Shown in pieces: positions 58,754-64,000 of a stretch of DNA of 64,000 nucleotides. How positions within the stretch are numbered: position 1 is the first letter of the stretch; each line of letters opens with the position of its first letter. The position numbers and the translations under genes are program-made. The stretch is from Ferrimicrobium sp. (lineage in GTDB: Bacteria; Actinomycetota; Acidimicrobiia; Acidimicrobiales; Acidimicrobiaceae): NCBI GenBank assembly GCA_022690815.1, contig JALCZJ010000006.1, forward strand, positions 1 through 64,000, given 5' to 3'. The notes under the pieces were generated by a model. That model had not been told where the DNA came from. It saw only the letters and a list, made by a program, of their open reading frames with translations, and did not search any database.

Positions 58754-59971
58754 TCAGTGGATGCGAAACTCAAGGTAGGGCGTTTGGGTAAGTAACGCCG
58801 GATCTGGCACCCTCCCGAGGCCGATTGCCGATGGGCGCTCGATTGTCCCATCTGGCTCGAGCCCAAAGGGCTCGGTGACGTCGGTGTCAAAGTAATGATC
58901 GGAGGCTCCAAGGTCGCCAACTCGGTCGAAGGCCGGATGAGACGCAAGTGCAAGGTTGTGCGCACGCCCGATGCCGGTCTCGAGCATGCCGCCGATTCTT
59001 AGGTGAAGCCCCTCACGTTCACAGCACTCGATGATTTTGAGTGACTCAACATAGCCACCGACCCGACTCGGTTTCAGGTTGATGGTCGGCCGCATCCCGA
59101 GGCGCAGTGCCGTGATGACGTCCTCGACCCCGCCGATCGACTCGTCGAGTCCGATCGGCGTGCGCAGCCGTCGAGCAAGGTCTGCGTTTCCGACGAGATC
59201 GCGCTCAAATAGGGGCTGCTCGAGGAGTGCGAAGCCAAGGGCGTCGATGGTGTCGATCGCATCGAGATCGCTAACATCAAAGCTCCCGTTGGCATCGAGG
59301 ACGAGGTTCTCCAAGGCAAGGGTGTGATCATGCACTTGGGTTGGTTGGCCGGAACTGCCTGGGCTGGGGCTCTCTGGGCTGAGGCTCTCGTGACGTGGCC
59401 GAGGTTGTGTGTCAGCAAGGAGCCCAGGGGTCCTAGCGAGTGCAATGAGTGGCTCAAGGGAGGTCGGGGCTATCTTGATCTTGGCGAAGCGGTAGCCTGC
59501 GCGACGCATGGTGCCAAGGTCCTTGGCGAGTTGCGTCGCATCATCGGCGAGCGAGAGCGAGACGCCGGCCGGCACATGGGTGCGCCCTGGAGCTGCTCCG
59601 AGGAGCTGCCAGAGGCTGATCCCCATCGAACGAGCCAATAGATCGAAATAGGCCATCTCAACGCTGGCCCGCGCCATCTGGTTGCCCTTGACCGTTCTCA
59701 GGGCGGCATTAAGCTCACCCGGTGACGCCATGCTCGGCGTGAGGCGCTCGAGCAGGTGATGCTCGATGATCTCTACGCAGGTGGCGACGGTCTCGGGCCA
59801 GTAATTCGGGTCATTCTGGGCGCTGATCTCGGACCAGCCAACCACGCCATCACTATCCTCAAGTCCGAGCAGGTAGGTATCCTTGGTGCGTTGGGTGCTC
59901 TCAGCTGAACGGAACGCAGTCTTGAGGCTCAGGGTGACGCGATGGAGCCGCAGTCTTGCGAGTCGGATCAT
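58754..59971 (-). CDS. Enolase-superfamily enzyme, o-succinylbenzoate synthase/N-acylamino-acid racemase type
   Basis: A 405-residue enolase-superfamily protein of the MenC/NAAAR branch. N-terminal capping domain ('GWSEISAQNDPNYWPETV'), barrel Lys residues K164 and K166 in 'FAKIKIAP', metal ligands D226 (LDANGS), E251 (ALLEQPL) and D276 (GLDESIG), and K300 in 'INLKPSRVGG'. Between 'PLIALAR' and 'LVLDANG' there is an extra stretch of about 40 residues, Pro/Ser-rich with a duplicated SPES/SPGS pattern, probably a surface loop. ATG 59971 overlaps the stop of the aldehyde dehydrogenase as ATGA; the open frame upstream is a shadow. Menaquinone synthesis is the likeliest role, but racemase activity cannot be excluded. 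Confidence 0.85.
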   Translation of the reverse strand: MIRLARLRLHRVTLSLKTAFRSAESTQRTKDTYLLGLEDSDGVVGWSEISAQNDPNYWPETVATCVEIIEHHLLERLTPSMASPGELNAALRTVKGNQMARASVEMAYFDLLARSMGISLWQLLGAAPGRTHVPAGVSLSLADDATQLAKDLGTMRRAGYRFAKIKIAPTSLEPLIALARTPGLLADTQPRPRHESLSPESPSPGSSGQPTQVHDHTLALENLVLDANGSFDVSDLDAIDTIDALGFALLEQPLFERDLVGNADLARRLRTPIGLDESIGGVEDVITALRLGMRPTINLKPSRVGGYVESLKIIECCEREGLHLRIGGMLETGIGRAHNLALASHPAFDRVGDLGASDHYFDTDVTEPFGLEPDGTIERPSAIGLGRVPDPALLTQTPYLEFRIH

Positions 59972-61506
59972 CCGAGGTCGGGATAGCGCTGATACTCGGG
60001 GAAGTTGCCATAGAGTCGAGACTCGCTTGGACCCTCGGTCACGGCCTGGACCAGGTACTCGCCTCCGACAAAGGCGCCCTTCCACGAGGCACCTCGGCCT
60101 CCGAACGGCTCCTCACGGTCTCCCCGGGATTTGACCTGATTGATCCCGACCTTGAAGGCGTTCACCTCCTCGGAGAGGGTCGCGGCAAGCTCGAGATCAT
60201 CGCTCGCGATCGACGAGACGAGTGCACCATTGGATACATTCATCTTGGCCAAGAGTTCGGCCGTGGTGTCGACGATCACGAAGGTGTCAACGGGACCAAA
60301 GGGTTCGGCATGATAGAGCGGTGAGGCGCGCGGTGGGTCCAAGATGGCTACTGGAGCCACGTAGGCGCTGAGGTCTTGACCCTCGATGAATCGGTGTGGA
60401 TCGAGGGTTCCGCGATAGATGGGGATGCCACCTCGACTAATGGCGTCCTCAACGTTGGCCAAGAGCTCGGTGGCCTTGGTCGCGTTGATGACCGGGCCAA
60501 AATCGACGTCCGGGATCGGGTCATCGGGGTTCTCGACCGCCAGTGGGTGACCAACGACTAGCGACGACACAATTGGCAGGTACATGGCGAGAAAGTCATC
60601 GAAGAGCTGGCGCTGAATCACGTAGCGGGGATAAGCGGTGCATCGCTGCTTGGCGTACTCAAATCCCTTTTTGATCATCGGAGCCAGTAGATCCCACTGA
60701 GAGAAGTTCCAGATGCCCCAAGCGTTCAACCCCTCCTGCTCGAGCATGTGTCGCTTGTCGGTTCGCACCAGGTCAGAGGCGATCTTGCCACCGGTATCCC
60801 TTCCTCCAACAAAGGCAAGGGCGCCGATCTCGGGTGATCGAACTAAGACGGAGGACAGCTTGCCGCCAAGGCCGGACACCAAGGTGACCGGTAACCCCTC
60901 CTCGATGGCGAAGGACATGGCGAGGGTGAGCGCCACGACCCCTCCGTCCGTCGGCGCCTTGGCGATAACCGCATTGCCCGAGAGCATCTGCACATAGAGC
61001 GCGTGAGCGAGCACCGACAGCGGATAGTTCCACGAGGCGATGTTTGAGACCGGACCCGGGAGGGGACCGCGACCCTCGAGCATGCGGTCGATCTCAGCCA
61101 GGTACCATTCGACGCCTGAGGTGGTGCGATCCACCGAAACCAGTGCTTGACGATAGGGCTTGCCGATCTCCCACGTCAAAAGCAGCGCCAGCAGCTCGCG
61201 ATGCTCGGCAATCTTCGCGATTGCTCGCTCGGTTCTGGCTTTGCGTTCAGCAAGTGGGATCTTGATCCATTGGAAATGGTCTTCGACGCAGCTATCGAGG
61301 GCCGCAGCTGCCTGATGAGTCTCGAGGAGCAAGGGTCCGTGAATGCGAGAGCCGTCAACCGGTGTCGTGGCCGGGTGAATTGCGCCCTCTTCGCGCCACT
61401 GGCCGCCCCAGTAGTTGGCGACACCAGAGGCCGTAAAGGCTTGAGGGGCAATCGCAGCTGCGCGTGCATAGAGTTCGTTCCAGCTCGTTCCAGGCTTTAC
61501 TTGCAT
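59968..61506 (-). CDS. Aldehyde dehydrogenase family protein
   Basis: A 512-residue NAD(P)-dependent aldehyde dehydrogenase. 'SNIASWNYPLSVLAHAL' matches the cofactor-binding PWNFPL region, 'AFVGGRDTGGKI' the second nucleotide motif, 'MLEQEGLNAWG' contains the general-base Glu256 (usually LELGG), and 'AKQRCTAYPRYV' the nucleophile Cys289. C-terminal 'EPFGGRGASWKGAFVGGEYL' is normal. ATG 61506 is preceded by GGAAGGAA; the longer frame to 61737 is Arg/Cys-rich and includes a DNA tandem repeat, so it is rejected. Coupled to the enolase-superfamily gene. Substrate unknown. Confidence 0.88.
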   Translation of the reverse strand: MQVKPGTSWNELYARAAAIAPQAFTASGVANYWGGQWREEGAIHPATTPVDGSRIHGPLLLETHQAAAALDSCVEDHFQWIKIPLAERKARTERAIAKIAEHRELLALLLTWEIGKPYRQALVSVDRTTSGVEWYLAEIDRMLEGRGPLPGPVSNIASWNYPLSVLAHALYVQMLSGNAVIAKAPTDGGVVALTLAMSFAIEEGLPVTLVSGLGGKLSSVLVRSPEIGALAFVGGRDTGGKIASDLVRTDKRHMLEQEGLNAWGIWNFSQWDLLAPMIKKGFEYAKQRCTAYPRYVIQRQLFDDFLAMYLPIVSSLVVGHPLAVENPDDPIPDVDFGPVINATKATELLANVEDAISRGGIPIYRGTLDPHRFIEGQDLSAYVAPVAILDPPRASPLYHAEPFGPVDTFVIVDTTAELLAKMNVSNGALVSSIASDDLELAATLSEEVNAFKVGINQVKSRGDREEPFGGRGASWKGAFVGGEYLVQAVTEGPSESRLYGNFPEYQRYPDLG

Positions 61507-62160
61507 GGGTTCCTTCCAGGGGAGGCGACCTTGGGAGTTTACGCATCCACGATGCTGGCTGCCACGCGGGCACCGCCATTCACGCGGGCACCGCCATTCA
61601 CGCATCAGGGATAGCAGCGATGGTTGCTCACAACTCACAGGGACGGGTCTTTCTCTTGTTGGCATTCTAGTCGCTAGGCTGGTCACAATAGGGCTGATTA
61701 CTGGTTGGCGAGGTGAGTTTGGTGTTAGCAGGTGCATTCGTGGTTGATGGCGGTTTGTCTACCGAGCCGTTGCGTTCGGAGTTGGGCGGCGGCACTGAAT
61801 TGTGAGGCGGTTTACATGACTGATGCGTGGATGACCAGAGGTCCCCAAGGGGCGTCACCACGAAGGCGACCCTCCTGTAACCAGGTTGAACCAAACGAGA
61901 TGCGAACAAGTCCAGTATGGATAGGTCCAGTACGGATAGGTCCAGTGGAGTTCAAACCGGCCGAGGGTCAACGATTCGGATTGCAACCCGCTGGACTACA
62001 ACTGACCGGGTGGAAAGCGGCTGACCTGCAGCCAAGCCAGACGCTGATGCCTGCCACAAGGTGCACGAGGGACACAGGGTCGATGTGCCCGAACCAGCGA
62101 CACCTGATCCAACGACAGAGTGCAATAGCGATCATGATGGCAGGTGACCCACGCACGCGA
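61507..62160. other. Gene-free region before miaA with short tandem repeats
   Basis: About 650 nt with no supportable gene. An 18-bp unit (CACGCGGGCACCGCCATT) occurs twice in tandem at 61563-61598 with a partial third copy. A 15-nt unit around ATAGGTCCAGTACGG repeats about three times between 61909 and 61954. Frames across these repeats are artefacts. Confidence 0.5.
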
Positions 62161-62174
62161 TAGGCGGGTTAGCT

Positions 62175-64000
62175 TTGGTTGGGCCGACGGCATCGGGCAA
62201 GAGCGAGCTCGCCGAAGTCGTCGCTCGTCGTCATCGTGACCTGGTGCCGATTGCGGTTGACGCCTTGTCAGTCTATGACGGCCTAGAGATCACGACGGCC
62301 ATGCCCAACCGCCGGGTTATTGGCGAGCTTGGTTACCGTTGTGTAGCTCATGTTCCGATCGATCAAGAGTACTCCTTGGGCCAGTTTCTCGCTGACCTCG
62401 AACCCGAGCTTGTCGAGCTCGCTTCTAAGGGCCGCGCGCCGCTCTTCGTTGGCGGGACGGCGCTATGGGTGCGGGCTATCGTCAATGGCTTTCGCCCCCC
62501 GCAAGGTGCCCATGGCCTTCGATCTTGGCTCGAAGCGAGGCTGATCGATGAGGGAGATGACCGTTCGGCCCATCAGCTACTCACCCAGCTTGATCCACTG
62601 GCTAGCAAGGGGATCGACTCTCGAAATCGTCGAAGGTTAGTGCGGGCCCTCGAGGTCGCGCTCGCGAGCGGCGGGACAGAGACGGTGGCTGGTGATCGAC
62701 TCGGCACCGACGCTACGCCGCGCTATCACCAGATTGGTATCCAACGATCTGGTGCAGAGCTTGAGCGACGGATCGAGGCTCGGATCGAGGCGCAACTAGC
62801 CCAAGGTTGGGTTGAAGAGGTCGAGCAGGTGCTTGCGCGCAACCCGTCGCGGACCGCACGGATGGCCATTGGGGTCGCTGAGATCAGCTCCTATCTCGTG
62901 GGGGCCTGCTCGTTCGATGAGGCTATTGCTATCATCAATCGACGCACGAGGCGGCTAGCAAAACGTCAGCTCGCCTGGTTACGTCGAGACGAGCGCATCA
63001 TCTGGGTGTCGAGTATCGACGAAGGGGTTGCGGTGCTCGATCGGTTGATCGACTCCCTTCATGCCGAAGGCGTTGCCCCACTCCAAACGGTGTCGAAGGC
63101 ACCGACAACTGCGCAGGCAACGTTGCAACCAGCTAGAGCCACGCACGCAAAGGAAGAAGCCCAAGACCTCACCGGGAGCGCTGGTGCCGCGATGTTGTCA
63201 TCGGAGGCACCAAACGACGATCGCGCGGCACTGGGGGAGAAAAAGCGGGTGAGTCGTCGCAGAACCAATGAAGGGATAAGAGCTGGCATGGAGCTTGTAA
63301 AGCTGTCAGGAGCAGGAAACGACTTTCTCATCGGAGATGTCCCAACGGGGCCAATGCCCGATGCTGAGACCATCACAGCGCTGTTGAATCGTAGCTATGG
63401 CGTTGGGGCAGACGGTCTGATTCTTGTCGATCTTGATGATCGTGGTCTACCGATCATGCATCTGTTCAACCAGGACGGTAGCCGAGCCGAGATGAGCGGC
63501 AATGGTCTGCGCTGTCTCGGCCATTATCTGGTGCAGTGCCACGCCTTTGGCCCCTCGTTTAATGTCGCTACCGATGCGGGCAAGCGAAGCTACCAGCTTG
63601 TTGAACAAAGTGATTGGGCGTGGACCGGTGAGACCACGATGGGCGACGTCGCGATCGTTGCTGACGAAGCCAACAGCTTTCTCGTTAATGTTGGTAACCC
63701 GCATCGCGTAATTGTGATGGCGACCCTTGCAGAGCTTGAGGCCATCGATATCGCACGTGAGGGTGCCTATCACCAGGAGATGGCGTCGACAACCGGTGGG
63801 ATCAACGTCGAATGGATCGTGCGCAGCGAGGATGGTTGTGTGATGCGGGTATATGAGCGAGGGGTTGGGCCAACTATGGCTTGTGGCACTGGGTCAGTAG
63901 CTTCAGCCAGCGTCGCACGTCATTTGGGATGGATTCATGATTACGCCGTCGTTGAGAACCCTGGCGGCGACCTTGTCGTGCGATTTGCGGCCCCCAGGAG
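62175..64000 (+). CDS. miaA-dapF: MiaA-DapF fusion: tRNA dimethylallyltransferase + diaminopimelate epimerase (3' end outside window)
   Basis: One uninterrupted frame of at least 608 codons, checked codon by codon. Residues 1-296 are MiaA, adding the dimethylallyl group to A37 of tRNAs: P-loop GPTASGKS, 'VDALSVYDGLEITTA', 'PLFVGGTALWVRAIVNGF', 'GIDSRNRRRLVRALEVAL', 'RRTRRLAKRQLAWLRR'. Residues 297-371 are an Ala/Thr/Gln/Glu-rich linker. From Met372 follows DapF: 'KLSGAGNDFL', 'GVGADGLILVD', 'SGNGLRCLGHYL', 'VNVGNPHRVIV', 'ERGVGPTMACGTGSVA'. Start TTG 62175 has AGGCGGG 6 nt upstream and is the only start codon in the frame before the P-loop. The two genes are neighbours but separate in other actinomycetes. 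About 40 residues are missing at the edge. Confidence 0.88.
   Translation, partial: MVGPTASGKSELAEVVARRHRDLVPIAVDALSVYDGLEITTAMPNRRVIGELGYRCVAHVPIDQEYSLGQFLADLEPELVELASKGRAPLFVGGTALWVRAIVNGFRPPQGAHGLRSWLEARLIDEGDDRSAHQLLTQLDPLASKGIDSRNRRRLVRALEVALASGGTETVAGDRLGTDATPRYHQIGIQRSGAELERRIEARIEAQLAQGWVEEVEQVLARNPSRTARMAIGVAEISSYLVGACSFDEAIAIINRRTRRLAKRQLAWLRRDERIIWVSSIDEGVAVLDRLIDSLHAEGVAPLQTVSKAPTTAQATLQPARATHAKEEAQDLTGSAGAAMLSSEAPNDDRAALGEKKRVSRRRTNEGIRAGMELVKLSGAGNDFLIGDVPTGPMPDAETITALLNRSYGVGADGLILVDLDDRGLPIMHLFNQDGSRAEMSGNGLRCLGHYLVQCHAFGPSFNVATDAGKRSYQLVEQSDWAWTGETTMGDVAIVADEANSFLVNVGNPHRVIVMATLAELEAIDIAREGAYHQEMASTTGGINVEWIVRSEDGCVMRVYERGVGPTMACGTGSVASASVARHLGWIHDYAVVENPGGDLVVRFAAPR
63288..64000 (+). 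other. dapF: DapF domain of the fusion, with possible internal start
   Basis: ATG 63288 (MELVKLSGAGNDF) is where a free-standing DapF would start. GAAGGGA lies 11-12 nt upstream, a weak ribosome site, so a separate DapF could also be made. The first catalytic position, Cys in CGNG of most DapF proteins, is Ser441 of the fusion (SGNG, codon 63495-63497); the second catalytic Cys is present as Cys570 (ACGTG, codon 63882-63884). Confidence 0.8.

What the first reader, a model, noticed from the sequence alone, without database searches (positions are those of the whole stretch)
62175..64000. In-frame MiaA-DapF fusion
The frame that encodes a full MiaA runs without a stop through a 75-residue low-complexity linker into a DapF. 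Translation was checked line by line to the window edge. miaA and dapF are adjacent genes in many actinomycetes, so loss of the miaA stop plus linker growth is a plausible origin. I know of no functional link between tRNA A37 prenylation and diaminopimelate epimerisation, so the pairing is unexpected. It may be a true bifunctional protein, a precursor that is cut, or a readthrough with an internal start at 63288.
Basis: partly seen in the sequence, partly recalled or inferred. Interest (0 to 1): 0.85.

Follow-up and report, generated by a model that had tools for sequence, protein, structure and literature searches.

The report
Genus-wide MiaA–DapF fusion, internal start
In the acid-loving iron bacterium Ferrimicrobium, the gene for a tRNA-modifying enzyme (MiaA) and the neighbouring gene for a cell-wall/lysine enzyme (DapF) have merged into one reading frame in every species available, and the second gene's old ribosome-binding site seems to be kept inside it, so the gene probably makes both a fused protein and a separate DapF.

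Summary
One uninterrupted frame from TTG 62175 to a TGA at contig position 64329 (just past the window edge) encodes 718 aa: MiaA, an 80-residue disordered linker, DapF. Both halves pass their curated family cut-offs and are the only miaA and dapF in the genome. It is not an assembly error: it is open in all 7 Ferrimicrobium genomes held, with 57-103-residue linkers and no in-frame stop in 642 linker codons (30 and 26 in the other frames). No other fusion was seen in about 115 related loci inspected or in a sample of 396 actinobacterial genomes; there the genes are separate, usually adjacent.

New here: the native DapF start codon (TTG in five genomes, ATG in two) still has a Shine-Dalgarno-like site before it, the best-ranked of 41-48 in-frame starts in six ORFs and second in the seventh. 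The likeliest reading is a fusion of neighbours at the head of a dap operon, yielding MiaA-DapF plus free DapF by internal initiation, the domains working independently. No published report was found. No expression data exist here, and the miaA start codon is uncertain. DapF carries Ser for its first catalytic Cys, as do nearly all Acidimicrobiales examined.

The parts
62175..64000 (+). Fused miaA-dapF ORF, 718 aa in full; continues past the window to TGA at contig C6 64329-64331
62175..63047 (+). MiaA (tRNA dimethylallyltransferase) domain, residues 1-291; true start codon uncertain
   Evidence: TIGR00174 and PF01715; PDB match 2zm5; start candidates
63048..63287 (+). Low-complexity, predicted disordered linker, 80 residues
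   Evidence: genus alignment; pLDDT below 50 for residues 310-362 and 364-369
63270..63277 (+). Shine-Dalgarno-like site GAAGGGAT before the DapF start (-9.1 kcal/mol, spacing 10)
   Evidence: best-ranked of 46 in-frame start codons of this ORF
63288..63290 (+). Internal ATG at the native DapF start position (7 codons before GAGNDF)
   Evidence: start codon kept at the native position in all seven fused ORFs
63288..64000 (+). DapF (diaminopimelate epimerase) domain; a product started here would be 347 aa, 37.3 kDa
   Evidence: TIGR00652 and PF01678; PDB matches 9mro and 5ha4; mass

Best explanation
A genuine gene fusion fixed in the genus Ferrimicrobium. The neighbouring genes miaA and dapF became one frame after the miaA stop was lost, joined by a fast-evolving disordered linker. 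Initiation at miaA gives a MiaA-DapF protein (about 78 kDa here). The old dapF ribosome-binding site and start codon, now inside the ORF, still initiate a free DapF (about 37 kDa). The two domains most likely work independently: MiaA prenylates A37 of tRNAs, DapF makes meso-diaminopimelate with the products of the downstream dap genes. Internal initiation would let DapF be made in excess of MiaA. Shown by sequence: the conserved frame, constraint on both enzymes, conservation of the internal start signal. Inferred: that both products are made and active, and that coupling of the two activities is not itself the selected function.
For: One open frame in all seven genus genomes. No in-frame stop in 642 linker codons versus 30 and 26 in the other frames. 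dN/dS 0.07-0.20 for MiaA and 0.07-0.10 for DapF, 0.58 and 0.65 for the linker in close pairs. Only copy of each gene, no diaminopimelate dehydrogenase bypass. Start codon with Shine-Dalgarno-like site at the native DapF start: rank 1 of 41-48 in-frame starts in six ORFs, rank 2 of 46 in G005. In five genomes the site is spelled GAG AGG AGA although AGG and AGA are 7% and 4% of Arg codons; synonymous recoding matches it in 0.7-4% of trials. A. ferrooxidans has GGAGGAGG before its separate dapF GTG at the same place. Candidate miaA starts have weaker sites. dap operon context conserved. Two confident domains joined by a disordered linker.
Against: No expression or enzyme data. The synonymous-recoding test is not significant alone in G000 (10%) or G005 (43%). 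Spacing of 10 bases in six genomes is at the long end. Other start sites of this operon have weak Shine-Dalgarno sites, so the genus may not depend on them. The seven genomes are related, so the ranks are not independent. The miaA start codon is unclear in G000 and G001.
Confidence: 0.6

Rival explanations
1. Only the fused protein is made. The internal Shine-Dalgarno-like site is inert, and DapF works solely as part of a dimeric MiaA-DapF.
For: The frame is always open, so every ribosome that starts at miaA makes the fusion. In G001, G003 and G004 the DapF Met is gone and only TTG remains at the native position.
Against: The strongest ribosome-binding site of nearly every one of these ORFs sits exactly at the old DapF start, spelled with rare codons, while the linker around it has been replaced.
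Confidence: 0.2
2. The fusion is a precursor that is cut in the disordered linker into MiaA and DapF.
For: The linker is long and predicted disordered, which would make it easy to cut.
Against: Linker sequence and length are not conserved and no shared cleavage motif is visible. It does not explain the kept internal start site.
Confidence: 0.12
3. The tether itself is functional: it co-regulates or co-localises tRNA A37 prenylation and diaminopimelate synthesis, or gives DapF a role near RNA.
For: Fixed in the whole genus. DapF binds and stimulates the RNA pyrophosphohydrolase RppH in E. coli (PMC4227774), a precedent for DapF acting in RNA metabolism.
Against: The linker is nearly unconstrained, the domains are separate everywhere else seen, and the two reactions share no substrate (established knowledge of the pathways).
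Confidence: 0.07
4. Assembly or sequencing artefact: a miaA stop was lost by error.
For: Several of the assemblies are metagenome bins, one with about 3.5-fold coverage by its contig name.
Against: Seven different genomes at 59-67% identity to the window protein show the same open frame with different linkers.
Confidence: 0.01

Closest known systems
MiaA, tRNA dimethylallyltransferase (TIGR00174 / PF01715; E. coli 2zm5)
   Same: Whole catalytic domain, P-loop GPTASGK, conserved Asp of the VD motif and the VGGT motif align to E. coli MiaA
   Different: Fused to DapF at its C-terminus; N-terminal start unclear in this genome
DapF, diaminopimelate epimerase (TIGR00652 / PF01678; 9mro, 5ha4)
   Same: Whole fold, second catalytic Cys (ACGTG), operon with dapC-like, dapD and dapE genes
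   Different: Preceded by MiaA and a linker, Ser in place of the first catalytic Cys, and a genus-specific disordered insert before the last strand
Overlapping, translationally coupled gene pairs (PMC6728339)
   Same: The probable ancestral state: dapF GTG overlaps the miaA TGA in Acidimicrobium ferrooxidans
   Different: In Ferrimicrobium the stop is gone and both genes share one frame
Genes with internal in-frame initiation (for example Cas11b, PMC11899642)
   Same: A ribosome-binding site inside an ORF can give a C-terminal protein besides the full one (title and abstract)
   Different: Here the short product would be a complete enzyme whose gene was once separate; its expression is not shown

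Membership tests
MiaA (TIGR00174) | Score above the curated cut-off | tested here: met
   176.3 bits against 148.65
MiaA (TIGR00174) | P-loop GPTASGK and the conserved Asp | tested here: met
   aligned to E. coli MiaA 2zm5; invariant in the genus
MiaA (TIGR00174) | Complete N-terminus with a standard start codon | tested here: inconclusive
   TTG 62175 begins inside strand 1 and no ATG/GTG/TTG lies upstream in frame
MiaA (TIGR00174) | Prenyl transfer to tRNA A37 | not testable with these tools
   needs an enzyme assay or tRNA analysis
DapF (TIGR00652) | Score above the curated cut-off and DapF fold | tested here: met
   159.5 bits against 114.65; Foldseek to 9mro, E 4.1e-21
DapF (TIGR00652) | First catalytic Cys (Cys73 in H. 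influenzae numbering) | tested here: not met
   Ser in EMSGNG against EMCGNG of 9mro; Ser in 98 of 103 related DapFs too
DapF (TIGR00652) | Second catalytic Cys in ACGTG | tested here: met
   aligned to 9mro and 5ha4; present in all 103 relatives
DapF (TIGR00652) | Epimerase activity on LL-DAP | not testable with these tools
   needs an enzyme assay; indirect support: low dN/dS, no bypass enzyme, dap operon
Gene with internal in-frame initiation | Start codon with ribosome-binding site inside the ORF, conserved among relatives | tested here: met
Gene with internal in-frame initiation | Short product detected | not testable with these tools
   needs a blot, N-terminal proteomics or ribosome profiling

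The most novel reading that the evidence does not exclude
MiaA-DapF is a bifunctional enzyme in which tethering matters: the ratio of fused to free DapF, set by internal initiation, links tRNA A37 prenylation to diaminopimelate and lysine supply, or gives DapF a role in RNA metabolism.
Probability: 0.09. Interest if true: 0.8.

Novelty: new variant of a known kind. Interest (0 to 1): 0.45.

Why it matters
It is a clean, genus-wide case of two metabolically unrelated neighbouring genes merging while the second apparently keeps its own ribosome-binding site, a route by which operon neighbours can fuse without disturbing expression of the downstream enzyme. It also matters for annotation, since one ORF carries two functions. 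If the tether proves to have a function, it would be an unexpected link between tRNA prenylation and the diaminopimelate pathway. The Ser-for-Cys DapF found alongside bears on how far the two-cysteine mechanism is really required.

Tried and rejected
Artefact: rejected by seven genomes. Fusions elsewhere: long open frames reported by the genome search for other genera (for example G017, G033, G153, G183, G289, G311) were fetched and all have a stop between the genes or after miaA; the reported lengths look like sums over two ORFs. G099 matched across both domains but with a stop between. The first genome-contig scan with the single protein found nothing. A bypass by diaminopimelate dehydrogenase: not found. 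The bifunctional DapF/glutamate racemase model NF038284 matched far below its cut-off. Literature: no paper describing the fusion. A conserved cleavage motif in the linker: none visible. A comparison of MenC inserts failed for two genomes because the wrong frame was extracted and was not repeated.

Full report
Observation. The frame starting at TTG 62175 is open to the window edge. In the parent genome (G000, contig C6) it runs to TGA 64329-64331, giving 718 aa, 77.6 kDa. Curated models place MiaA at residues 1-282 (TIGR00174, 176.3 bits, cut-off 148.65) and DapF from residue 372 (TIGR00652, 159.5 bits, cut-off 114.65); Pfam gives PF01715 and PF01678. The genome search found this one place and no second copy of either domain, and no diaminopimelate dehydrogenase (PF16654) that could bypass DapF; two control genomes known to have it did ring.

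Who has it. Six other genomes of the same genus are held, and all carry the fusion as one open frame of 668-712 codons. A named record of the genus is 'Ferrimicrobium sp. isolate clean1785' (L032); its contig length (9415) equals that of the G006 contig. The proteins are 59-67% identical to the window's. In other genera of the family, order and class the genes are separate ORFs, usually adjacent: none of about 115 further loci examined is fused. A sample of 396 genomes across the phylum returned no other match spanning both domains; this is a sample, not a census. In G012, whose single contig of 2,158,157 bases is, from memory, Acidimicrobium ferrooxidans DSM 10331, the dapF GTG overlaps the miaA TGA.

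The linker. It is 57-103 residues long, of low complexity, and hardly alignable between clades. There is no in-frame stop in 642 codons, against 30 and 26 in the other two frames and about 25 expected by composition, so it is translated. Between close pairs its dN/dS is 0.58 and 0.65 (0.46 and 1.16 in more distant pairs), against 0.07-0.20 for MiaA and 0.07-0.10 for DapF: both enzymes are constrained and the linker is nearly free. AlphaFold2 on a 57-row alignment gives two confident domains, with pLDDT below 50 for residues 310-362 and 364-369; both match solved MiaA and DapF structures. A second unstructured insert (16-89 aa in the genus) sits before the last DapF strand.

Internal start. In all seven fused ORFs a start codon persists where free-standing DapF proteins begin, 7-9 codons before GAGNDF: TTG at -7 in five, ATG at -7 in G000, ATG at -9 in G005. 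Every in-frame ATG/GTG/TTG of each ORF was scored by pairing of the upstream bases with the 16S rRNA tail. The native DapF start ranks first of 41-48 in six ORFs and second of 46 in G005, at -9.1 to -11.6 kcal/mol. In five genomes the site is GAG AGG AGA, although AGG and AGA are 7% and 4% of Arg codons in these genes; synonymous recoding gives a site as strong in 0.7-4% of trials (10% in G000, 43% in G005). The 16S tail used is the common bacterial one, assumed rather than read from this genome. Because the surrounding linker has been almost wholly replaced, a mere relic should have decayed, so I infer that internal initiation is under selection. G012 has GGAGGAGG before its GTG at the same place, so the site is probably the old dapF ribosome-binding site. 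The candidate miaA starts have weaker sites, mostly -3 to -8, which fits a low level of fused protein and more free DapF.

Context and mechanism. Downstream lie hflX (overlapping the end of the fusion), a DapC-like aminotransferase that is below its family cut-off, a dapD and a dapE, in the same order in two other Ferrimicrobium genomes, in G012 and in G010. So dapF heads a dap operon. MiaB is encoded 6 kb upstream (C6 55047-56441), so the MiaA product can be further modified. I propose that the fusion is a tolerated merger of coupled neighbours: MiaA-DapF from the first start, free DapF from the second, each domain active on its own. DapF is a dimer in E. coli (PMC4227774), so fused and free subunits could mix; this is inference.

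Caveats. There are no expression data. The miaA start is uncertain in G000 (TTG 62175 cuts the first strand; GTG 62144 is one base out of frame) and in G001 (no canonical start; a metagenome contig of about 3.5-fold coverage by its name). DapF has Ser for the first catalytic Cys; this is shared by 98 of 103 related, unfused DapFs, so it is unrelated to the fusion. Cys-to-Ser mutants of a related racemase lose most activity (PMC11602996), so DapF activity should be assayed. By sequence family, fold and operon it is DapF; by the canonical Cys pair it is a variant.

Verdict. A real, conserved, apparently unreported fusion of two known enzymes, with good sequence evidence for a retained internal start. 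It is of interest to specialists in gene fusion and translation, with no evidence yet of a functional link between the two activities.

Noticed in passing
window 63288-64000 (EMSGNGLRC) and DapFs of L009-L130: The first catalytic Cys of DapF is Ser in 98 of 103 related DapFs, including nearly all Acidimicrobiales; four from other orders of the class keep Cys, one was not readable. The second Cys is kept in all. A natural Ser/Cys DapF as the apparent only route to meso-DAP would be unexpected.
   Followed up: partly
window 62130-62180: No standard in-frame miaA start upstream of TTG 62175; GTG 62144 is one base out of frame with the conserved N-terminus. G001 also lacks a canonical start.
   Followed up: partly
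L001 3313-3585 (contig C6 63987-64259): Genus-specific low-complexity insert of 16-89 residues in DapF before its last beta strand, predicted disordered.
   Followed up: partly
window 58754-60085, minus strand: The menC-like gene also carries an insert of about 35 low-complexity residues compared with two related genera, hinting that such inserts are common in this genome.
   Followed up: no
contig C6 55047-61737: menC and an aldehyde dehydrogenase-like gene on the minus strand lie between miaB and miaA; the aldehyde dehydrogenase was found beside miaA in G002 and G003 but not in the stretches read of G010 and G012.
   Followed up: no
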